Source: a virus
Length of the DNA stretch: 26,421 bases
Virus record (IMG/VR): IMGVR_UViG_3300030106_006588
Span: 1-26,421 of that record
Direction: 5' to 3' (one strand)
The notes below the pieces were generated by a model, which saw only the letters and a program-made list of their open reading frames with translations, did not search any database and was not told the origin of the DNA. Below are positions 2,815-26,336 of the stretch, piece by piece; within the stretch, counting starts at the first letter, position 1; each line of letters opens with the position of its first letter. The position numbers were made by a program, and so were the translations under genes.

Positions 2815-4560
2815 TTGGGTGCTCCATCTATCACGTTCATAGGGGATGAAAATAGTGGTCTATTTAGAAAAAGCGGTGGTAGTGTAGGTTTTGTTTCTGA
2901 TGCTACTGAGATAGCTAATTTTGATAGTAATGGAATAACTATTTCCTCTGGTAATTTAATTATTCCTGACAGTATTATTCATAATGGAGATGCAAATACA
3001 AAGATACGATTTCCAGCTGTTGATACAGTAACGATAGAAACTGCTGGTAGTGAGAGACTAAGAGTTGATTCGTCTGGAAATGTAGGTATAGGTACAACAG
3101 GTCCAGCACGTAATTTGGAAGTTAAAGGTGCATCAGGTGATCCAGTTCATTTTAAATTAGAAGGAGATCCAGCTGACTATGCACGTATAATGTTTGCTGA
3201 TGGCACTGACGATAATATTGGTGAGATACGTTATAACTTTGGTAGCGATTTTATGTCGTTCACTGCAAATGCAACAGAGCGTATGCGTATAGATTCGTCT
3301 GGAAGAGTTGGTATAGGTACAACAAGTCCAGGTTCATATAACGGTGGTTTTGATAATTTCGTTATAAGAGGATCTGGTAATACTGGACTGACTATAAGCA
3401 CTGATGATAATAGCTTCGGACAAATCTGTTTTAGTAATGCTGAAGATGCTCATGTCTCAGGAGCTATACAATATCGTAACAGTGATAACATCCTTGAATT
3501 AAGGGCAGGTGAGTCTAATGGAGCAGTAATTTTTTCTACAGTTTCCAATACAGAACGCATGCGTATAGATTCGTCTGGAAACGTAGGTATTGGAATTACA
3601 GATCCAGATCAAAAAGTTGAAGTGGCAGGTGTTGTCGCTGGAAATGATTTAATGGTTGGTCGAACAGCAAATAGATTTCCAATTATACAAAGGCACACTG
3701 TATCTGCAGGAAGTCAAAGTTTGACTATTACAGCAGGGGCAGGGTTAACAACTAACTCTACCTCAGCACCAACCCTTAATGATGCTTTAAATGGTGCTGC
3801 GATACAAATAGTAGGTGGTAATCCAACAAGTGATGTTTTTGGTGGTGGTATTAGATATTATGCAAATGGTCATACAAGTCCTAATAACCCAGGCACTGGA
3901 AATCAACACGTTTTTTATAGAAGGTCAGCAGCAAATACTTTTACTGAAGCAGTAAGAATAACACATACTGGTCACTTTAAAGCTTCAACTGAAGGTAACT
4001 ATGTAGATATTACTGGAAATTATCATGAAAGTTTCACTAATACAAATAATCAACATATTCACTGGTTTCAGCATAGTGGTAGTACGCAAGCACAACAATT
4101 TGGTATAAGAGTCCGGACAGGTGATGATGGTAATGACTCAAATGCTTTAATACAAGCTTCAAGTGGTAGTGCAACTGCTGGTTTAATTTTACGAAATGGC
4201 TCTTTCCAAAGTCGTAATAATTCTTTTGGTGGAATATCTGACATAAAATTAAAAGAAAATATTGTTGATGCAAAATCTCAATGGGATGACATAAAAGCAA
4301 TAAAATTTAGAAATTTTAATTTTAAAGATAATCCAACACAAAAAATGTTAGGTGTTGTTGCACAAGAAATTGAACTTGTTTCTGCTGGTTTAGTTGAAGA
4401 TATTCCAGATAGAGATCCAGATACAAATGAAGATTTAGGCACTGTTACAAAACATGTAAAAAGTTCTATTCTTTATATGAAAGCAATGAAGTGTTTACAG
4501 GAAGCTATGGCAAAAATAGAGGTGTTAGAAACAGAAGTTGCAGCATTAAAAGCAGCTTAA
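2815..4560 (+). CDS. Tail fibre with C-terminal S74 intramolecular chaperone
   Basis: 581 aa counted from the first canonical start, a TTG; the true protein probably includes the upstream module at 2542-2814 (about 673 aa). The shaft carries three copies of the E-R-x-R-(I/V)-D-S-SG-(N/R)-VGIG module (near bases 3049, 3276, 3551). The C-terminus is a peptidase S74 / endosialidase-type intramolecular chaperone: SDIKLKENI with Ser475 and Lys480 five apart, as in the known Ser-Lys self-cleaving dyad, then VVAQEIE and a C-terminal coiled coil. In the family, this domain drives trimerisation and then cuts itself off N-terminal to the Ser. Fibre and S74 calls are firm; the start is the uncertain part. 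Confidence 0.85.
   Translation: MGAPSITFIGDENSGLFRKSGGSVGFVSDATEIANFDSNGITISSGNLIIPDSIIHNGDANTKIRFPAVDTVTIETAGSERLRVDSSGNVGIGTTGPARNLEVKGASGDPVHFKLEGDPADYARIMFADGTDDNIGEIRYNFGSDFMSFTANATERMRIDSSGRVGIGTTSPGSYNGGFDNFVIRGSGNTGLTISTDDNSFGQICFSNAEDAHVSGAIQYRNSDNILELRAGESNGAVIFSTVSNTERMRIDSSGNVGIGITDPDQKVEVAGVVAGNDLMVGRTANRFPIIQRHTVSAGSQSLTITAGAGLTTNSTSAPTLNDALNGAAIQIVGGNPTSDVFGGGIRYYANGHTSPNNPGTGNQHVFYRRSAANTFTEAVRITHTGHFKASTEGNYVDITGNYHESFTNTNNQHIHWFQHSGSTQAQQFGIRVRTGDDGNDSNALIQASSGSATAGLILRNGSFQSRNNSFGGISDIKLKENIVDAKSQWDDIKAIKFRNFNFKDNPTQKMLGVVAQEIELVSAGLVEDIPDRDPDTNEDLGTVTKHVKSSILYMKAMKCLQEAMAKIEVLETEVAALKAA
3274..3596 (+). repeat. Near-identical ERMRIDSSG-coding repeats in fibre genes (first cluster)
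   Basis: Bases 3281-3303 and 3556-3579 share the core GTATAGATTCGTCTGGA nearly unchanged. The same core recurs in the second fibre (5606-5630) and the third fibre (about 20656, 20927, 21167 with one change). The match holds at synonymous positions, so it is more than amino-acid conservation. Confidence 0.8.
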
Positions 4561-4976: not shown

Positions 4977-6548
4977 ATGGCATACATAGGAGCAGAACCT
5001 GTACCAGGTCAGAATAGAGAAGTTGATGACATATCAAGTGGTTTTAATGGCAGCACTACTGCATTTACCCTTCAAGTTTCCTCATCAAATGTAAGTCCAG
5101 AAAGTGCAAATAACATACTAATAAATCTTGGTGGTGTTTTACAGAATCCCGGAACAGATTATACAATTGCTGCGAGTACCATAACTTTTACTACAGCTCC
5201 AGCAGCCGGTCTTAGTTTCTTTGGATTGATATTAGGAGCTGGAATAAATACAGCAACTGTAGCCGATGACACGATAGGTGCTTCTAAATTAATTGATACA
5301 GCGGTTACCGCAGGTAGTTATACGACTGCTGACATTACAGTTGATGCTCAGGGAAGAATTACAGCTGCAGCAAGTGGAACAATCTCAGGAGCTGAGATAG
5401 CTGATCAGGCCGTAACAAATGCCAAGGTAAATAACTCAGCTGCTATTGCAGGTACAAAGATTAGTCCAGATTTTGGATCTCAGGCAATATCTACAACTAA
5501 TGATTCCGTTACTATCGGTGATAGTATTATTCACTCTGGTGATACAAACACAAAGATAAGATTCCCAGCAGCCGATACAGTCACAGTCGAAACTGCTGGT
5601 TCAGAACGTATGCGTATAGATTCGTCTGGAAACGTAGGTATAGGTTCTTCAGTTACAAATCAATTTGGTCATAAATTATGTATTGAGGATACAAGTGGAT
5701 CAATATTTTATGCACAACACTCAACATCAGGAATACAATTAAAACTGAATTTAGATAATACTAATAATGTTGCATTATTTGGAACAGTTTCTTCAGACGA
5801 CTTACAATTTGTTACCGCAAATAATAATGCCCTTCTTATAGACTCGTCTGGGAGGTTATTAACAGGTGGAGCTACATCTTCGCATGGATCAACAAATGCT
5901 GATGATTTACAGATTGGTGCAAATAATCAAGGTAATCAAACTGGAATTACTTTAGGAAGTGCTAGTGCAAGTAGTGTTAGATTTGCTGACGCTAGTGATG
6001 ACACTTCTGGAGCGATAAATTATATACATAGTGATGATACCATGCGTTTTTCAACTGGATCTAGTGAAAGAGTAAGATTTGATAGTGATGGATTAAAGTT
6101 TAACGGAGACACGTCAGCAGATAACGCACTTGACGACTATGAAGAGGGAACTTTCACGCCACAATTTGCTGGTGTAGGTGGTGGTCCAACCTCAATAACT
6201 TTTGGAACTAACAACGGAGGAAACTATGTAAAAATAGGTCATCTTGTATTTGTTTCAGGCCGATCTGAAATTACTGCTTCTTCAGGTGGTAGTCAGCATT
6301 GGTTAATAACTAATATGCCGTTTGTTTCAAAATCTGGTGGGAAACAATTTGAGTCAATAGGTCATATTGCTCTTGAAAACTTTGCTATTCCTGATGATGT
6401 AATAGACCTTGTTGCAGTTAAGGAGCAAGGTAATAACAATATGCTCTTTAGTGGTACTAGAAAAAATAATACCTTAACTGTTGGTATTAGTCATGGAAAT
6501 GATCAAGTTTATAACGTATCATTTGCAGTTTGTTATAGGACTGCTTAG
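4977..6548 (+). CDS. Tail-fibre protein without S74 domain
   Basis: 523 aa. The N-terminus (MAYIGAEPVPGQNREV, then DDISSGFNGSTTAF) is a common start of phage fibres and is homologous to the orphan module at 2542-2814. Next come a linker (AAIAGTKISPDFGSQ) that is also present at the start of the fibre at 20125, an IIHSGDTNTKIRFPA module shared with the first fibre, one full ERMRIDSSGNVGIG repeat, and a second, divergent SSERVRFDSDG repeat. The C-terminus begins LDDYEEGTFTPQF and continues as a roughly 140-residue globular domain, as in fibres that end with a receptor-binding tip instead of a self-cleaving chaperone. Fibre is firm; tip specificity is unknown. Confidence 0.83.
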   Translation: MAYIGAEPVPGQNREVDDISSGFNGSTTAFTLQVSSSNVSPESANNILINLGGVLQNPGTDYTIAASTITFTTAPAAGLSFFGLILGAGINTATVADDTIGASKLIDTAVTAGSYTTADITVDAQGRITAAASGTISGAEIADQAVTNAKVNNSAAIAGTKISPDFGSQAISTTNDSVTIGDSIIHSGDTNTKIRFPAADTVTVETAGSERMRIDSSGNVGIGSSVTNQFGHKLCIEDTSGSIFYAQHSTSGIQLKLNLDNTNNVALFGTVSSDDLQFVTANNNALLIDSSGRLLTGGATSSHGSTNADDLQIGANNQGNQTGITLGSASASSVRFADASDDTSGAINYIHSDDTMRFSTGSSERVRFDSDGLKFNGDTSADNALDDYEEGTFTPQFAGVGGGPTSITFGTNNGGNYVKIGHLVFVSGRSEITASSGGSQHWLITNMPFVSKSGGKQFESIGHIALENFAIPDDVIDLVAVKEQGNNNMLFSGTRKNNTLTVGISHGNDQVYNVSFAVCYRTA

Positions 6549-20124: not shown

Positions 20125-21981
20125 ATGTCTCAGACTAAGGCTCAATTAATTGATCCAGTAGATGGAACAATAGTAAATGCAGATATAAATGATAGTGCAG
20201 CAATAGCTGGAACAAAAATATCTCCTGATTTTGGATCGCAAAATATAACTACAACTGGATCTTTAGGTGCTAGTGGCTTTAGCACTACTGGAGGGGAAAT
20301 TTCTTTAACTGGAACAGTTCCAAGAATTGGTTTTACAGATTCAAATGCGAATAGTGATTTCAGACTCAAGGTTGATGGTGGTTCTTTTCAAATAGAAGAT
20401 ATTACTAATAGTAGTGCTGATAGATTAGTAATAAATTCATCTGGCAACGTAGGTATAGGCACATCAAGTCCAATTGCAAAATTCGATGTTACAGATGGTA
20501 CAACAAGTATTTCTTTTAATAAGACAAACAATACACCACGAATTGATTTTAAAGGTAATAATGTTTCAGATTTATGCCAAATAAAAGCAGCAGAATCTAG
20601 TGGGGGAGGAATTTTTCAATTTCTTACAAAAACTACTGGTGGCACTGCTACAGAACGCATGCGTATAGATTCGTCTGGATCTGTAAATATTGGATCTACT
20701 GGTTATGCAGGGGGTGGTGTTAATCCAATACTTTATTTAAGAAGCACTAGTGGAAGACAAATGAAAATTCATAATACTGCTAGCTCTACTTGTGGAATAC
20801 AGCTTTCAAATAATACAACAGGTGAGGGAGAAGATGCTGGATTCCAACTTGCAGTTTTAAGTACTGGTGATGGGTTTATAAATAATCCTCATTCTAAAGC
20901 AATAATATTTAATACTGCCAATACAGAACGTATGCGTATAGATTCGTCTGGAAAAATAGGTATTGGTAGAACTGATCCAGTTAACTTTGTTGACATACAT
21001 CGTGGTGCGGATGAAGATAATATTTTAATAGTTCGTGGTCAAGATACAAGTGGTGAATATTGTGCATTAGGTGTAAATGGAAGTAATGCAATCGTTACTG
21101 CTGGAGGTGTAAGCGGTAATAACACTAATTTAGTTTTTAGAACTGCACCTAATGGTAACGAAACAGAACGTATGCGTATAGACTCGTCTGGAAGGGTGCT
21201 TATAGGTACAACTTCTGTTGGAGCACATGAAGGAGGAAATAATTTTACGATTGCAGAAAGTGGACATTGTGGAATGACAATACGATCAAGTACATCTACA
21301 AGTGGAAATATTTATTTTGCCGATGGTACAAGCTCAGGTGAATCAGCTAGAGGAGAAATAAGTTACAGACACGCCACAGATGATTTAAGAATTTTTACCG
21401 CAGCAACAGAACGTATGCGTATCAATAGTACTGGTGATATTTTTATAGCAACTACTACAACAAACCCTGGTTTTGGTAATAATTCTGACCCAGGACATTA
21501 TATAAACCATGTGGGTTATGTAATGCACTCAAGGGATAATGGTACTGCATTATATGTCGCAAGAAATGATAGTACAGGTTCATTAGTTTCATTTAACTAT
21601 AATGGTGGTGGTCAAATAGCAGATATTACAACAAACGGTTCTAGTGTTTCTTATGGTACTGGTTCTGATTACAGGCTTAAGGAAAATATAACTACTTTAA
21701 CAAATGCAATAACAAGATTAAAAAATTTAAAACCTTCAAGATTTAATTTTTTAACAACTCCATCATTAACACAAGATGGATTTATTGCACATGAAGTACA
21801 GGAAGTCGTACCAGAAGCAGTTACAGGAGTAAAAGATGAAGTACGTACAGAAGATGGTGATATGGGACAGAAAAAGGGAGATCCAGTCATGCAAAGCTTA
21901 GATGTTGCAAAACTTGTTCCCTTACTTACTGCTGCTGTACAGGAACTAATTACAAAAGTTGAAACTTTAGAATCTGCTTAG
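20125..21981 (+). CDS. Tail fibre with C-terminal S74 intramolecular chaperone
   Basis: 618 aa. The N-terminus (SQTKAQLIDPVDGTIVNADI, then DSAAIAGTKISPDFGSQ) differs from the other fibres at the start but joins the shared linker also found at 5440-5480. The shaft has repeated modules: a divergent RLVINSSGNVGIG, then ERMRIDSSG three times and ERMRINSTG once, alternating with variable spacers. The C-terminus is an S74 chaperone with Ser514 and Lys519 (SDYRLKENI) and FIAHEVQEVVPEAVTG, then a coiled coil. It should trimerise and release the chaperone by self-cleavage. It sits about 13.6 kb from the other fibre block. Confident class-level call. Confidence 0.87.
   Translation: MSQTKAQLIDPVDGTIVNADINDSAAIAGTKISPDFGSQNITTTGSLGASGFSTTGGEISLTGTVPRIGFTDSNANSDFRLKVDGGSFQIEDITNSSADRLVINSSGNVGIGTSSPIAKFDVTDGTTSISFNKTNNTPRIDFKGNNVSDLCQIKAAESSGGGIFQFLTKTTGGTATERMRIDSSGSVNIGSTGYAGGGVNPILYLRSTSGRQMKIHNTASSTCGIQLSNNTTGEGEDAGFQLAVLSTGDGFINNPHSKAIIFNTANTERMRIDSSGKIGIGRTDPVNFVDIHRGADEDNILIVRGQDTSGEYCALGVNGSNAIVTAGGVSGNNTNLVFRTAPNGNETERMRIDSSGRVLIGTTSVGAHEGGNNFTIAESGHCGMTIRSSTSTSGNIYFADGTSSGESARGEISYRHATDDLRIFTAATERMRINSTGDIFIATTTTNPGFGNNSDPGHYINHVGYVMHSRDNGTALYVARNDSTGSLVSFNYNGGGQIADITTNGSSVSYGTGSDYRLKENITTLTNAITRLKNLKPSRFNFLTTPSLTQDGFIAHEVQEVVPEAVTGVKDEVRTEDGDMGQKKGDPVMQSLDVAKLVPLLTAAVQELITKVETLESA
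20651..21437 (+). repeat. Near-identical ERMRIDSSG-coding repeats in fibre genes (second cluster)
   Basis: Copies at about 20651-20679, 20924-20952, 21164-21192 and, truncated, 21405-21428 share ACAGAACG(T/C)ATGCGTATA followed by GA(T/C)TCGTCTGGA. They match the repeats at 3281, 3556 and 5606 down to silent positions, giving several potential recombination points between fibre genes. Confidence 0.8.
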
Positions 21982-22006
21982 TAGTATTAAATAAATTTAA
22001 AAAGCT

Positions 22007-22210
22007 ATGTTATTTAACGTGATTTGTTGGCATTTAGCATTGCATTTAAGGATTACTCAAATATTATATAAAGAGATGGTTGATTTATACGATTTAGAAG
22101 AAACTAATCATAGGTTACTTCTTATCTTTAAAACAGAAAAACCATTACAAGAAGCATCAGAAGGTGCTTGGACAATTCTTACAAAAGAATTAAAAAAAAT
22201 TAAATTATGA
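22007..22210 (+). CDS. Small protein after third fibre
   Basis: 67 aa from ATG at 22007; an in-frame ATG at 22076 would give 44 aa (MVDLYDLEETNHRLLLIFK and on) and may be the better start, since the first 23 residues look unlike the remainder. The shared part ends EGAWTILTKELKKIKL. It overlaps the next gene as ATGA (22207-22210). Helical and charged without motif. Position suggests a role with the fibre; function unknown. Confidence 0.45.
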   Translation: MLFNVICWHLALHLRITQILYKEMVDLYDLEETNHRLLLIFKTEKPLQEASEGAWTILTKELKKIKL

Positions 22211-22548
22211 ACCTTTTTTTATCTTGCCCTCCTGTATACACATTGCCAGGAACTTGGACTGACCCTGATAAAATTGCTAAATGTAAGGATACTTTAATTC
22301 CGCATGGAAATTTAGGACAGGGTATAGCTTTTGCTTTATTTATTGGAGTATTATTAATATTTTTGATCCTTTATGGGTTATATATGACTTTTGGCAAGGG
22401 TGGTAAAAATTTAAAAGATGAGATCAAAGAGCATGCTAGATTGCATGAATTAGGTATTGCTCATGGTCATGAGGGAGGAGGAGAAAGGTTTAACTTATCA
22501 AAGCAAGCTATGGAGAAAGATTATCCACAACATAAACATAAAAAATAA
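22207..22548 (+). CDS. Single-pass membrane protein
   Basis: 113 aa, coupled to the previous gene by an ATGA overlap. A short N-terminal part (NLFLSCPPVYTLPGTWTDPD) is followed by a strong membrane span at about 38-62 (GQGIAFALFIGVLLIFLILY) and a charged, His-rich tail (HARLHELGIAHGHEGGGE) with a Lys/His end. N-terminus outside and tail inside is the likely topology. No family is recognised. Its stop abuts the stop of the convergent gene at 22549 with no spacing. Confidence 0.55.
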   Translation: MNLFLSCPPVYTLPGTWTDPDKIAKCKDTLIPHGNLGQGIAFALFIGVLLIFLILYGLYMTFGKGGKNLKDEIKEHARLHELGIAHGHEGGGERFNLSKQAMEKDYPQHKHKK

Positions 22549-22680
22549 TTACTTTAATCCTCGATCTTTACTACCTTTAAACCATTTTTTTTCAGACTTT
22601 TCTAATTTATTTTTTTTATCTTCTAAGGCTAATTTAGCGTCTACAAAAAAAGGTAAATTCTTTAATTTGTAAGTTTGCAT
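22549..22680 (-). CDS. 43-aa charged protein ending the hli operon
   Basis: ATG at 22680, TAA at 22551-22549. The peptide reads MQTYKLKNLPFFVDAKLALE then DKKNKLEKSEKKWFKGSKDR and ends GLK. It is Lys-rich and helical with a Trp-Phe pair near the end. It lies 31 nt after the stop of the 33-aa membrane gene and abuts the convergent stop at 22548. Codon and composition look coding rather than random, and the rest of the operon is equally compact. No family is recognised. Confidence 0.5.
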   Translation of the reverse strand: MQTYKLKNLPFFVDAKLALEDKKNKLEKSEKKWFKGSKDRGLK

Positions 22681-22711
22681 TTTTAAAGAGTATTATCTTT
22701 AATTTTATTAT

Positions 22712-22813
22712 TTATACTTCTAATAAACCATTCATTCCTGCTATTGTTCCAACAATAACAAAAAAAATAAACTCAAATAATGAGTAATAAGGGCTGTAGA
22801 AAATTTTAGTCAC
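22712..22813 (-). CDS. 33-aa single-pass membrane peptide
   Basis: Starts at GTG (22813-22811), which overlaps the TGA stop of the preceding gene as GTGA. The sequence begins MTKIFYSPYYSLFEFIFFVI, then VGTIAGMNGLLEV. One hydrophobic span with an aromatic-rich N-side. A TAA lies in frame eight codons upstream of the GTG, which limits the start. Resembles tiny photosystem-type subunits in size, but there is no match I can name. The overlap with its neighbour is the main evidence. Confidence 0.5.
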   Translation of the reverse strand: MTKIFYSPYYSLFEFIFFVIVGTIAGMNGLLEV

Positions 22814-22884
22814 GCAAATACAATTGATCCTACATTAGTAAAAATGTATAAGGAAATTAAAGTTGTAAAAAGAAGATGATTCAT
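22810..22884 (-). CDS. 24-aa hydrophobic minigene
   Basis: ATG at 22884 overlaps the upstream TGA (ATGA), and its own TGA overlaps the next GTG (GTGA). It encodes 24 aa starting MNHLLFTTLISLYIFT and ending VGSIVFA, a single hydrophobic helix or cleavable-signal-like peptide. It is too short to be found by length alone; the double stop-start overlap is the support. It may be a real microprotein or a translational relay that lets ribosomes reach the next start. Confidence 0.45.
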   Translation of the reverse strand: MNHLLFTTLISLYIFTNVGSIVFA

Positions 22885-23051
22885 TTTGCTTTTTGATAAA
22901 TGGGAGTCATAATACCACCGCCTTGATCGTCGTCATCATCGCCATCAATTGCACGTAGTATTAGTTCTATTAAAACTAAACAACCTATGGGATAAAAGAC
23001 CCATAAGGCTGCTGTAGAGGAGGATATTAGATATGAATTTTCTAATATCAT
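22881..23051 (-). CDS. Small membrane protein with acidic cluster, in hli operon
   Basis: 56 aa; ATG at 23051-23049 overlaps the upstream hli stop as TAATG. Residues 13-35 are a membrane span (TAALWVFYPIGCLVLIELIL), followed by RAIDGDDDDDQGGG, an Asp-rich cluster, and MTPIYQKAK. Its TGA overlaps the next ATG. The hydrophobic span plus acidic tail suggests a membrane peptide with a stromal/cytoplasmic acidic end. I believe a similar protein follows hli genes in other cyanophages, but cannot verify this here. Function unknown. Confidence 0.6.
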   Translation of the reverse strand: MILENSYLISSSTAALWVFYPIGCLVLIELILRAIDGDDDDDQGGGIMTPIYQKAK

Positions 23052-23194
23052 TAAATAAAACCAGGAATTAGCTGTCCTGTAGTTAGATAAGCACCAACTG
23101 CAGCAACTACACCTAACATTGCTAATTGACCATTTAATCTCTCAGCAATTATTTTTTGTTTTTCAACTGGTTTTGTATAAGATTGAATGTCCAT
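23051..23194 (-). CDS. hli: High-light-inducible protein (Hli), fourth copy
   Basis: 47 aa from ATG at 23194-23192, which overlaps the previous stop as TAATG; a longer frame reaches 23242 but would run into the neighbouring gene. It has the Hli signature AERLNGQLAMLGVVAAVGAY followed by LTTGQLIPGF, with the chlorophyll-ligand E-x-x-N and the membrane helix. Hli proteins bind chlorophyll/carotenoid, protect photosystem II assembly from excess light and are standard cyanophage auxiliary genes. N-terminus is MDIQSYTKPVEKQKI. Firm family call. Confidence 0.88.
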   Translation of the reverse strand: MDIQSYTKPVEKQKIIAERLNGQLAMLGVVAAVGAYLTTGQLIPGFI

Positions 23195-23307
23195 TACACA
23201 TATCCTGGGATTAGTTGTCCTGTAAAGCCATAGACTGTACATATAACCACAAAACCCATCATTGCTGCTCGGCCTTGTGCTTTAAAAAAAATATCCTTGT
23301 TATCCAT
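23194..23307 (-). CDS. hli: High-light-inducible protein (Hli), third copy, short
   Basis: 37 aa, overlapping both neighbours as TAATG (23309-23305 and 23196-23192). The sequence is DNKDIFFKAQGRAAMMGFVV, then ICTVYGFTGQLIPGYV. It keeps the helix and the TGQLIPG ending but has A-Q-G-R-A-A in place of the E-x-x-N-G-x-(A/W)-A ligand motif, so Glu of the chlorophyll-binding pair is missing and Arg is shifted. It may be a divergent Hli or a partner subunit. Family call is good; pigment binding is doubtful. Confidence 0.75.
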   Translation of the reverse strand: MDNKDIFFKAQGRAAMMGFVVICTVYGFTGQLIPGYV

Positions 23308-23459
23308 TAGAATATGCCAGGAATTATATTACCTGTTGTTGCGTATGCACCAACTGCTGCTACGAATCCAAGCATTGCTGCCCAGCCGTTAAATCTTTCT
23401 GCTTCAGGAGTCATGATGTTGTACCTTTGAGTAATTGTAAATTGGGAATTGATTTTCAT
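23307..23459 (-). CDS. hli: High-light-inducible protein (Hli), second copy
   Basis: 50 aa from ATG at 23459, preceded by AAGGAG 6 nt upstream, the best Shine-Dalgarno of the operon; a longer frame to 23513 is rejected for that reason. Sequence starts MKINSQFTITQRYNIM and carries AERFNGWAAMLGFVAAVGAY followed by ATTGNIIPGIF, with E-x-x-N of the chlorophyll-binding helix. Gene spacing to the first hli copy is 10 nt, and the downstream start overlaps its stop. A thylakoid membrane protein in the host. Firm. Confidence 0.88.
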   Translation of the reverse strand: MKINSQFTITQRYNIMTPEAERFNGWAAMLGFVAAVGAYATTGNIIPGIF

Positions 23460-23469
23460 CCAAGTCTCC

Positions 23470-23661
23470 TTAGAAGATTCCTGGAATAATCTGACCGGTT
23501 GTTGAATAAGCACCTATCAAAGCCACGAAACCAATCATTGCCCAACGTCCATTAGCTTTTTCAGCCTCTTCTGGATAACCCTTATAATTAGGATCTATCT
23601 CAGTATGTGGCTCAATAGAATAGATGTTTTGGCGATTGCCACTTTCTGTAACTGTTGTCAT
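23470..23661 (-). CDS. hli: High-light-inducible protein (Hli), first copy
   Basis: 63 aa from ATG at 23661. The N-terminal 30 residues are polar (TTVTESGNRQNIYSIEPHTE); then come EEAEKANGRWAMIGFVALIG and AYSTTGQIIPGIF, the full Hli motif with E-x-x-N-G-R-x-A-M. Of the four copies this has the complete motif with Arg, so it is the best candidate for canonical pigment binding. It is the first gene of the operon and lies directly downstream of the NtcA-type promoter (23684-23724). Confidence 0.9.
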   Translation of the reverse strand: MTTVTESGNRQNIYSIEPHTEIDPNYKGYPEEAEKANGRWAMIGFVALIGAYSTTGQIIPGIF

Positions 23662-23683
23662 TAGGTATTTATATCTTCTTTAT

Positions 23684-23724
23684 ATTTTACACTTGTTACA
23701 TTTTGTAACAGTACTTAATATTAC
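23684..23724 (-). promoter_or_regulatory. NtcA-type activated promoter of the hli operon
   Basis: On the - strand, GTAATATTAAGTAC (23724-23711) is a perfect GTA-N8-TAC palindrome, the NtcA binding consensus. After 21 nt comes TAAAAT (23689-23684), matching the TAN3T -10 box. NtcA-activated cyanobacterial promoters have 20-24 nt here and no -35. The start would be about 15 nt before the hli ATG at 23661. Confidence 0.68.
23694..23710. promoter_or_regulatory. TGTTACA/TGTAACA dyad between NtcA box and -10
   Basis: TGTTACA (23694-23700), TTT, TGTAACA (23704-23710): a perfect 7-bp inverted repeat of 17 bp, lying in the position of a -35 box next to the GTA-N8-TAC site. It looks like a second binding site for a dimeric regulator of the CRP/FNR class or for a repressor. 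Confidence 0.5.
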
Positions 23725-23765
23725 TTAACAAAAATAATGTATACTATTAGTTTTATTTATATCTC

Positions 23766-26336
23766 TTACTGTGATTGTCTTTCTGGGAGTATAGTTACTG
23801 AGGATTTAAATTTTTCGTCAGAATTTCTTATTGCCAATCCTTTTATAAATGGTCTTCCTTTTTTACTAAAGCTAATTATTTCTTTCATTCCCAACTGATT
23901 TTTACAACAATCTAATAAAAGGGCTATAAATCTTTTCTGACCTACTGGCTTAGAACCTGTATCTTCACAATATGAACAATATGAGGCATAAAGATGAAAA
24001 TTACTATTTACATATCTTTCCTTAGAATCTTTAGCAGCTGGGATTTTTTTACCCACAGCGGATACTGACTCTGGTGAATGAACTACTTCAGACTGTAGCC
24101 ATTCAACTAAATTATTACTAGTTAAAAGAATACTATTTCTTACAGCTTTTAAATGATCAACTTTTTCATAAGTATCAAGTAAATATTCTCTCATTTCTTT
24201 AGTTTCCATTTGTAAGACCCAATTAACTAATCCTGGTAAATAAGACTTCCATAACCCCTTTACCTCGCCATTTTCAAGTTTTATCATCTCTACTGCTTCA
24301 GAATTTTTATCCCAAAGTGGCCTGTTAAATTCAACAGTTAATCTTCTTCTTGTAAGACCAGAGGTATTATCAGTCGTTTGTATTGGCTCATTGGCACAAA
24401 CCATAACCATTCCTGTATATACAAAAGGCTCTCCAACATTTTTATTTTTTTCTTCGAATCTTAAATTATCTCCTCCTGTTAAAGCTTTGAATATTTGTGC
24501 AGATCCTCCATATCTTTCTGAGTCATTAATCAAAGTAAGTCTTTTACCTTTGATAGAAGCAATTTCAAAACGACTTTGCTCTAATTGATTTAATGTTGTA
24601 GATGCATAATTACCATTACCAATTAAAGCACAACATAAATTAGCGAAGGTTGATTTACCTCTACCACCAGGGCCAATAACTTCCAAGAATCGTTGTAATT
24701 CATGGCCTTTCCCTACTAAACATGCTTTTAACCATGCTCTTAATACTTGTACTCTTTCCTCATCATTGTATTGAGTTTTCCTTAACCATTGAATTATAGG
24801 TCCTGATTCAGCGTTAGGATCATACTCAAAATCTAAACCCCAAGTTAGATAATTTTCTTGGTCATGTGGGAGAAACTCTGATGTGCTCATTTCTAAGACA
24901 CCATTACGAAAAGCTAATTTGTCAGGATCATCATTCCAATAAGGTTGAGTAATATAAGCTTTTGTTAAATTTGTTACATCAGATAAAAGATGAGATGTAA
25001 AGCCACCTGGGGTTGGTATACTTTCTCTTAAAAATAAATCCTGAACAAAATGTTTATATTCATCTTTATATTCTTCTCTTCGCCATGTTCCCTTTTTAGA
25101 TTGGTAAAACATAAATGTATCATATTTAGGATCATATCTCCAACCACATTCAATAACCATTCCTGTAACCATTTCAGCTAATTCCGAAGCCGGTGCAGTT
25201 TTAGGTCTTCCTTTGTTGCTAATTTTTTCTTTTATATTTAATTTTTCTTTCTTTGTAGGTTCGCCTATTAACTCGGTTAATACTTGATTTACAAATGGCA
25301 TGGGTAATTCAGCATTATCTTGTTGAAATGCTTTTTTAGCCTTTTCTGCTAATACATCTGCCGATTCAACAACAAAGCCTCCTACGTCTATATATCCGTC
25401 TTCTTTTGCCATAGCTCGAAGATGATGTAAACCACAACGATTTTCTGGGGCAGGACCACCTTCTACGACTTCAAATGTATCCCATTTCTTTTCACATACC
25501 CCATCTTGAAAATTCTCTGCTTGTTTTGACCAATCAATCCAATCACCAAGTAAAGCCTCATCTACTTGTTTAAGACTCATACCTACCTTTAACCAGTCAT
25601 CATAATCAGCCGATCTTTCAGGATTTAAATGATCTAGATAAATTTTTGCTTCATTAACATATTCTTCTTGCTGATATTCCGATCCTTCCTCATAATCTAA
25701 ATTTACTTGCTGGGTTACAATACCTGATTTTACTGGTTTTTTATATTTATTTAAAGGATATGCCTTAGCTATTGCATCGTATAACCACTCAGGCATTTCT
25801 GGAGGATTTTTTGCAAATTCAAATCCACCATGTTGAGTTGTAAAATAACCTTCTGTATCTGGATGACTACCCATTATTGCACCTTGTCTAGATCTAAATA
25901 AGATTTCAAAACAAGGAATACCTATTTTTATCGTTGCTTTATCAGGTAATAAATTTAATTTTGCAGCTGGTACACTGAAAAGCATTCTCTGCCTATCTGG
26001 TTTTCCAGATGAAATAGTAAGGGTTGGTGGAAAAGCACCCGATATAGGAGCTCCTGCAAGCTCTTCAAGGTCTTTTATCGCATCTGTGCCATCTATATCT
26101 ACCCAAACTAAACCACCGCTGTTTGACCATACACCTGTAATTAATCCAATCCCTGTTGCCTTTCCCTGATCAAACTCACGTTTTATCTCTTCTATTGAAT
26201 ATGGTTGAGTAGTCCACCCAGCTACATATGCCCTTTTACCTTGTAATGGAGTAAGAGCCCAATCTTTAGGGATTAAATCAAAATTAATCTCTCCGGGTTT
26301 TAAATGATTATTTGGTTCTGGTGATGCAGTTGGCAT
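23766..26336 (-). CDS. Prim-pol / D5-type primase-helicase
   Basis: 856 aa. Domains in order: N-terminal bifunctional primase-polymerase (AEP) with D80-x-D82 (LVWVDIDGT) and FEILFRSRQGAIMGSHPDT; a PriCT-2-like helical region at about 235-320 (DYDDWLKVGMSLKQ, CEKKWDTFE); a D5-type N-terminal region near 395-515; an SF3 helicase with Walker A G555-x-G-G-x-G-K561-S (GPGGRGKST), Walker B-like LTLINDSE (601-608) and sensor VMVCANEP (644-651) with Arg663-665. It unwinds and primes phage DNA. All three helicase motifs are intact. The start has no strong Shine-Dalgarno. Firm for family; the exact replication partner genes are outside the window. Confidence 0.9.
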   Translation of the reverse strand: MPTASPEPNNHLKPGEINFDLIPKDWALTPLQGKRAYVAGWTTQPYSIEEIKREFDQGKATGIGLITGVWSNSGGLVWVDIDGTDAIKDLEELAGAPISGAFPPTLTISSGKPDRQRMLFSVPAAKLNLLPDKATIKIGIPCFEILFRSRQGAIMGSHPDTEGYFTTQHGGFEFAKNPPEMPEWLYDAIAKAYPLNKYKKPVKSGIVTQQVNLDYEEGSEYQQEEYVNEAKIYLDHLNPERSADYDDWLKVGMSLKQVDEALLGDWIDWSKQAENFQDGVCEKKWDTFEVVEGGPAPENRCGLHHLRAMAKEDGYIDVGGFVVESADVLAEKAKKAFQQDNAELPMPFVNQVLTELIGEPTKKEKLNIKEKISNKGRPKTAPASELAEMVTGMVIECGWRYDPKYDTFMFYQSKKGTWRREEYKDEYKHFVQDLFLRESIPTPGGFTSHLLSDVTNLTKAYITQPYWNDDPDKLAFRNGVLEMSTSEFLPHDQENYLTWGLDFEYDPNAESGPIIQWLRKTQYNDEERVQVLRAWLKACLVGKGHELQRFLEVIGPGGRGKSTFANLCCALIGNGNYASTTLNQLEQSRFEIASIKGKRLTLINDSERYGGSAQIFKALTGGDNLRFEEKNKNVGEPFVYTGMVMVCANEPIQTTDNTSGLTRRRLTVEFNRPLWDKNSEAVEMIKLENGEVKGLWKSYLPGLVNWVLQMETKEMREYLLDTYEKVDHLKAVRNSILLTSNNLVEWLQSEVVHSPESVSAVGKKIPAAKDSKERYVNSNFHLYASYCSYCEDTGSKPVGQKRFIALLLDCCKNQLGMKEIISFSKKGRPFIKGLAIRNSDEKFKSSVTILPERQSQ

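What the first reader, a model, noticed from the sequence alone, without database searches (positions are those of the whole stretch)
22549..23661. Minigene operon: four hli genes chained to four tiny unknown genes by stop-start overlaps
The - strand run has eight genes of 63, 50, 37, 47, 56, 24, 33 and 43 aa. Five successive junctions are overlaps: TAATG at 23309-23305, 23196-23192 and 23053-23049, ATGA at 22884-22881, GTGA at 22813-22810. Hli clusters are known in cyanophages, but the tail of single-span micro-peptides, including a 24-aa one, looks like an undescribed extension. I infer a polycistronic, translationally coupled membrane-peptide module for the infected photosystem.
Basis: partly seen in the sequence, partly recalled or inferred. 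Interest (0 to 1): 0.82.

Follow-up and report, generated by a model that had tools for sequence, protein, structure and literature searches.

The report
Phage light-protection operon with micro-membrane proteins
In a marine cyanobacterial virus, four light-stress (hli) genes are chained to three tiny conserved membrane-protein genes, one only 24 amino acids long and never annotated; two have relatives in Prochlorococcus, and the operon carries what looks like the host's own high-light control element, so it is probably a thylakoid-protection kit switched on by light stress.

Summary
In detail: eight minus-strand ORFs at the stated coordinates, with six (hli2 to the 33-aa gene) chained by five stop-start overlaps. 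The first four are Hli. The 56-aa (X), 24-aa (Y) and 33-aa (Z) genes form a real, selected cassette. Of 117 fetched phage loci with Z (some duplicates), 113 carry Y just upstream, 106 of these exactly 24 codons; pN/pS is 0.18-0.28 in frame only. X and Z are already catalogued without function (T4-GC 437 and 554/594; PHROG 7843 and 17067); Y was unannotated in every record inspected. X and Z, but not Y, have homologues in about 20 sampled Prochlorococcus-size genomes, in some inside hli clusters. The cassette occurs in T4-like phages and in this unrelated S-EIV1-like lineage. The 43-aa ORF is soluble, lineage-specific and not part of it.

New here: phage hli operons have HLR1-like sites, the host RpaB high-light element, at their promoters (about 430-fold enriched; absent at the seven distinct phage psbA and the host X/Z upstreams tested).

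Best reading: a high-light-derepressed thylakoid microprotein kit supporting Hli/photosystem function in infected cells. Biochemistry is inferred; a PsbM resemblance of X was tested and is inconclusive.

The parts
23692..23709 (-). HLR1-like element (RpaB-type high-light regulatory site) GTTACAAAATGTAACAAG, upstream of the operon
   Evidence: 2 mismatches to KTTACAWWNNKTTACAWW; near relative L016 has 1; hli-operon upstreams enriched against shuffles, against the rest of the loci and against host X/Z upstreams. On its own the window site is not exceptional.
23470..23661 (-). hli1, 63 aa, canonical ExxNGRxAMxGF
   Evidence: phrog_178 E=1.4e-26; Pfam Chlorophyll A-B binding, just under cut-off
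23307..23459 (-). hli2, 50 aa (or 35 aa from 23414)
   Evidence: phrog_178 E=1.6e-19; 35-aa form in most relatives
23194..23307 (-). hli3, 37 aa, degenerate chlorophyll motif (KAQGRAAM)
   Evidence: phrog_178 E=3.2e-12; starts in the hli2 stop (TAATG)
23051..23194 (-). hli4, 47 aa
   Evidence: phrog_20629 E=3.2e-21; starts in the hli3 stop (TAATG)
22881..23051 (-). gene X, 56 aa: one membrane span plus DDDDD-GGG-MTPxY acidic tail
   Evidence: phrog_7843 E=2.7e-22; same family and place as T4-GC 437 in P-SSM4/P-HM1/P-HM2/P-SSM7; Prochlorococcus homologues E to 2e-23; pN/pS 0.18
22810..22884 (-). gene Y, 24-aa single-span minigene
   Evidence: 113 of 117 Z loci have it, 106 exactly 24 aa; pN/pS 0.28 in frame against 0.72/1.89; unannotated in inspected GenBank/RefSeq records
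22712..22813 (-). gene Z, 33 aa, one span with E-F-x-F-F-x-x-V-G-x-x-A-G-x-x-G
   Evidence: phrog_17067 E=1.5e-5; T4-GC 554/594; Prochlorococcus homologues E to 8e-15; pN/pS 0.18
22549..22680 (-). 43-aa soluble ORF downstream; not part of the general cassette
   Evidence: no hit in 50,697 phage records; relatives only in S-EIV1-like contigs, several with a CxxC/CxHC-rich insert, lost in L015/L029/L030

Best explanation
This is a light-protection operon of a marine S-EIV1-like cyanophage that probably infects Prochlorococcus. One transcript, started from a promoter bearing an HLR1-type element of the host regulator RpaB, encodes four Hli proteins and then three single-span membrane microproteins (X 56 aa, Y 24 aa, Z 33 aa) by stop-start coupling, giving linked amounts. 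X and Z have relatives in Prochlorococcus, some of them inside host hli clusters; Y is phage-specific. The proteins most likely insert into the thylakoid membrane and act as accessory subunits or assembly helpers that stabilise Hli and photosystem (probably PSII/D1) complexes while the phage makes its own D1. Shown by sequence: genes, coupling geometry, selection, synteny, host homology, HLR1-like sites, spread over two phage lineages. Inferred: translation in vivo, RpaB binding, thylakoid location, partner complex and host.
For: ORFs and overlaps. Hli families. Conserved X-Y-Z order, Y at exactly 24 codons in 106 of 113; Y-to-Z overlap -4 in 58 and -26 in 18; X-to-Y overlap -1 in 46 and -4 in 13. 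Frame-specific purifying selection. Host homologues of X and Z in about 20 of 339 sampled cyanobacterial genomes, all 1.6-1.9 Mb; host clusters hli-hli-Z-W-X and hli-X-Z-hli. psbA near Z in 24 of 117 loci, and Z directly after the psbA stop in L105. HLR1-like sites: 38 upstream clusters mean 1.95 mismatches against 4.33 in shuffles (0 of 300); 55 hits per 8.6 kb upstream of hli against 8 per 535 kb elsewhere; 49 of 78 host hli upstreams with at most 1 mismatch. S-EIV1-like backbone. [quoted passage not shown]
Against: No expression or protein data. X, Y, Z lack the Hli chlorophyll motif and match no Pfam, NCBIfam or solved-structure family. Host X/Z genes have no HLR1 and in several genomes lie away from photosynthesis genes (Z beside an adenine-phosphoribosyltransferase-like gene), so their photosystem link rests on hli linkage. 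Y is absent from hosts and from P-RSM1. In T4-like phages part of the HLR1 signal overlaps the -35 hexamer TTGACA; the window site has 2 mismatches and no canonical sigma-70 promoter was found beside it.
Confidence: 0.55

Rival explanations
1. The microproteins act like SliP4: adaptors that bring NDH-1 and the photosystems together to raise cyclic electron flow (ATP) in infected cells, rather than Hli/PSII assembly helpers.
For: SliP4 is a 37-aa high-light-induced protein under RpaB control, with CEF and state-transition defects on deletion (PMC12850537); infected Prochlorococcus is modelled to favour cyclic flow (PMC5082946).
Against: Genomic links are to hli and psbA; no sequence relation to NDH or SliP4 was tested directly.
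Confidence: 0.2
2. Y (and perhaps Z) matters as a translated spacer or regulatory leader whose translation tunes the next gene, the peptide itself being unimportant.
For: Stop-start overlaps, fixed 24-codon length of Y, variable residues in Y.
Against: In-frame purifying selection on Y; conserved hydrophobic pattern; Y-Z spacing ranges from -32 to +67 nt, so coupling geometry is not conserved. Z has an invariant motif and host orthologues.
Confidence: 0.1
3. The small membrane peptides are holin-like or membrane-disrupting lysis/exclusion factors.
For: Single-span tiny phage peptides can form holins or pinholins (general knowledge).
Against: X and Z have chromosomal homologues in Prochlorococcus, some in hli clusters; they sit in hli operons with high-light-type promoters; no lysis genes were noticed beside them in the annotated phage records.
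Confidence: 0.06
4. The tail ORFs are decaying hli duplicates or chance ORFs.
For: hli genes duplicate readily; Y loosely resembles the C-terminal half of an Hli helix by eye.
Against: Conserved length, order and in-frame selection over many divergent loci; X and Z are distinct families with host orthologues.
Confidence: 0.03

Closest known systems
hli clusters of T4-like Prochlorococcus phages (P-SSM4 hli03-hli03-hli03-hli04-T4-GC437; P-HM1 PHM1_199-204)
   Same: Same order hli x3-4, X, (Y), Z, with coupled starts
   Different: Here in an S-EIV1-like phage; Y is unannotated in those records; HLR1-like element lies farther upstream (-51) with a different promoter layout
Prochlorococcus chromosomal hli islands (L274-L278)
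   Same: hli genes with X and Z homologues next to each other
   Different: Host clusters carry W (33 aa, WRDL motif) or another hli instead of Y; order can be Z-W-X
SliP4 (HliR1) of Synechocystis
   Same: RpaB-controlled tiny single-span protein for high light (PMC12850537, PMC5126843)
   Different: Single host gene; no homology shown; not phage-borne
PsbM, PSII small subunit
   Same: X profile ranks PsbM chains first and second among PDB sequences, invariant Pro in register
   Different: E only 0.17-0.64; 31 of 600 column shuffles score as high; X has an acidic tail; hosts keep a separate psbM
phrog_905-like acidic-tail peptides after hli in Synechococcus phages (Syn19, ACG-2014d/j)
   Same: One span then DDDD-GG-M-P tail, directly after hli
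   Different: Different span sequence; no Y or Z seen after them

Membership tests
Hli / high-light-inducible (Lhc-like) proteins | Sequence match to the hli profile | tested here: met
   Genes 1-4 match phrog_178/20629; X, Y, Z, 43-aa do not
Hli / high-light-inducible (Lhc-like) proteins | Chlorophyll-binding motif ExxNxR | tested here: inconclusive
   Full in hli1 (EKANGR); partial in hli2 (ERFNGW), hli4 (ERLNGQ); degenerate in hli3 (KAQGR)
Hli / high-light-inducible (Lhc-like) proteins | Pigment binding and photoprotection | not testable with these tools
   Needs biochemistry
T4-GC 437 / phrog_7843 (X) | Profile match and place after hli | tested here: met
   E=2.7e-22; synteny
T4-GC 554/594 / phrog_17067 (Z) | Profile match and place after X-Y | tested here: met
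   E=1.5e-5; alignment A5; synteny
RpaB/HLR1 regulon | (G/T)TTACA(T/A)(T/A)NN(G/T)TTACA(T/A)(T/A) near the promoter | tested here: met
   For phage hli operons as a class; the window site has 2 mismatches and is not exceptional alone
RpaB/HLR1 regulon | RpaB binding and light-dependent derepression | not testable with these tools
   Needs EMSA/reporter
PsbM | Significant profile match to PF05151 | tested here: not met
   No Pfam match of 18 X members; four viral records with X or Z loci gave no PF05151 match; shuffle p about 0.05
SliP4-like proteins | Sequence homology to SliP4 | not tested
   Used only as a functional precedent

The most novel reading that the evidence does not exclude
Probability: 0.35. 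Interest if true: 0.85.

Novelty: new variant of a known kind. Interest (0 to 1): 0.6.

Why it matters
Cyanophage photosynthesis genes are usually discussed as copies of known host genes (psbA, hli). This cassette adds conserved unknown microproteins, two with relatives in the ocean's most abundant photosynthetic organism and one only 24 residues long and overlooked by annotation, and suggests that phages plug the operon into the host's own high-light regulator. If right, it names new candidate photosystem factors of Prochlorococcus and makes light-gated control of phage genes directly testable.

Tried and rejected
PsbM homology of X: attractive (top two PDB hits in two searches) but 31 of 600 column-shuffled profiles do as well, so not claimed. 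Search for Y in 24 host genomes: nothing. HLR1 at host X/Z/W genes: no enrichment, nor at phage psbA; these serve as negative controls. 43-aa ORF as part of the module: rejected. Frameshift fusion of Y and Z: rejected because their spacing varies from -32 to +67. T4-type late promoter TATAAATA at about 23668-23675: seen in the window and L016/L017/L027 but lost in close relatives, so not claimed. Rfam: no RNA family in 22000-24500. Structure prediction was not run: isolated single helices cannot separate the hypotheses.

Full report
What is there. Genes 2-7 form the chain; gene 1 is separated by 10 nt and gene 8 by 31 nt. Genes 1-4 are Hli by profile. Gene 5 (X, 56 aa) matches phrog_7843 and gene 7 (Z, 33 aa) phrog_17067, both of unknown function; gene 6 (Y, 24 aa) matches nothing; gene 8 (43 aa) is hydrophilic.

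Context. The window is 26 kb of a 69-kb virus record. Its 856-aa primase is 34% identical over full length to that of Synechococcus phage S-EIV1, and psbA lies at about 36.5 kb of the record. Twelve of 24 tested contigs that carry the cassette have this primase at 60-100% identity, while others, up to 210 kb, lack it; cultured carriers are T4-like Kyanoviridae/Eurybiavirus. The cassette therefore sits in at least two unrelated phage lineages. Since Z was found only in Prochlorococcus-size host genomes and mostly in Prochlorococcus phages, I predict a Prochlorococcus host (inference).

Conservation. P-SSM4, P-HM1 and P-HM2 have hli03-hli03-hli03-hli04-T4-GC437, with T4-GC 554/594 following in the latter two. 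The 24-aa frame fills the unannotated space between in P-SSM3/4, P-RSM3, MED4-213, P-HM1/2, S-SSM4/6b, P-SSM2/7 and P-RSM6. Scans of viral contigs gave, with the phage loci, 117 loci with Z (some the same contig fetched twice; 85 distinct Y-Z sequences): 113 with Y, 106 of exactly 24 aa, Y-to-Z overlap -4 in 58 and -26 in 18; X was found in 103. Of the four loci without a detected Y, L123 has a 26-aa Y farther upstream, L019 has a Y-like frame without an ATG, L105 has Z directly after the psbA stop codon, and L025 has Z alone. P-RSM1 has X and Z but no Y. Pairwise pN/pS is 0.28 (Y), 0.18 (Z), 0.18 (X) in frame and 0.72-2.9 in shifted frames. These counts are of related sequences, so they show selection but are not independent events.

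Host origin. Profiles of Z and X hit about 20 of 339 sampled cyanobacterial genomes, all of 1.6-1.9 Mb, with E-values down to 8e-15 and 2e-23; weaker full-span X matches occur in a few genomes of 2.1-2.7 Mb. In some, X and Z lie inside hli clusters: hli-hli-Z-W-X (L277, L278) and hli-hli-X-Z-hli (L274-L276), W being another 33-aa single-span protein overlapping Z. Y was not found in 24 such genomes. None of X, Z, W is in Pfam or NCBIfam.

Promoter. Upstreams of phage hli operons contain HLR1-like sites: 38 sequence clusters have a mean best mismatch of 1.95 against 4.33 in dinucleotide shuffles (0 of 300 as low), and sites with at most one mismatch are 428-fold denser there than in the rest of the same loci (55 in 8.6 kb against 8 in 535 kb; loci related, so treat the fold as approximate). 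Host hli genes give the positive control (28 of 78 perfect, 49 with at most 1 mismatch); host X/Z/W and phage psbA upstreams are negative. S-PM2 hli1 has one too (1 mismatch), whereas hli genes read through from an upstream gene do not. In T4-like phages one copy overlaps the -35 and one follows the -10 box; sites in the core promoter are those through which RpaB represses until high light releases it (PMC6331805; PMC11633204). In the window the site is GTTACAAAATGTAACAAG at 23709-23692; it has 2 mismatches and by itself would not stand out; a near relative (L016) has one mismatch. No held paper was found to report HLR1 in cyanophages, but older subscription papers on HLR1 were not available, so priority is not claimed.

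Mechanism. Shown: genes, coupling geometry, selection, host relatives, promoter element as a class. Inferred: co-translation of X, Y, Z with Hli, derepression under excess light, insertion in thylakoids, and support of Hli/photosystem complexes while phage D1 is made. The closest functional precedent is SliP4, a 37-aa RpaB-controlled protein acting on photosynthetic complexes (PMC12850537). A PsbM-like nature of X was tested and left open: PsbM is the best PDB match (E 0.17-0.64) but about 5% of column shuffles match it as well.

Verdict. What is new is the 24-aa gene as a conserved, unannotated family, the chromosomal relatives of X and Z, the cross-lineage spread, and the HLR1-like control.

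Noticed in passing
L274:1698-2503, L275:1765-2745, L276:2095-3277, L277:1229-2770, L278:2392-3427 (Prochlorococcus-type genomes): Host hli clusters carry X and Z homologues; in two, a 33-aa W protein (motif WRDL) overlaps or follows Z. W also occurs elsewhere as a 31-33-aa gene near host X.
   Followed up: partly
L303:702-848, L304:705-851, L306:706-846: Synechococcus phages have a 46-48-aa peptide right after hli with a different span but the same acidic DDD-GG-M-P tail (phrog_905-like): the tail may be a shared interaction tag.
   Followed up: no
L006:2152-2247, L008:2177-2263, L010:2344-2433, L308:1190-1303: Another conserved tiny peptide (MKPVPLKVVPYIF...) in the hli/X/Z neighbourhood of S-SSM4, P-RSM6, P-HM2 and P-RSM1, unannotated or without function.
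   Followed up: no
22549-22680 and L027, L035, L038, L041, L043 downstream of Z: Relatives of the 43-aa ORF are 52-55 aa with CxCPHCxCxCEHC, a likely metal-binding motif that the window copy lacks.
   Followed up: partly
L105:1-708: Z lies directly after the psbA stop codon (TAAATG) without hli, X or Y.
   Followed up: partly
23194-23307: hli3 lacks the E and N of the chlorophyll-binding motif (KAQGRAAM), as does its P-TIM68 homologue.
   Followed up: no
2815-4560, 4977-6548, 20125-21981: Three large tail-fibre-like ORFs share the repeat 'ERMRIDSSG(N)VGIG'; two of them (2815-4560 and 20125-21981) end in an intramolecular-chaperone-like domain.
   Followed up: no
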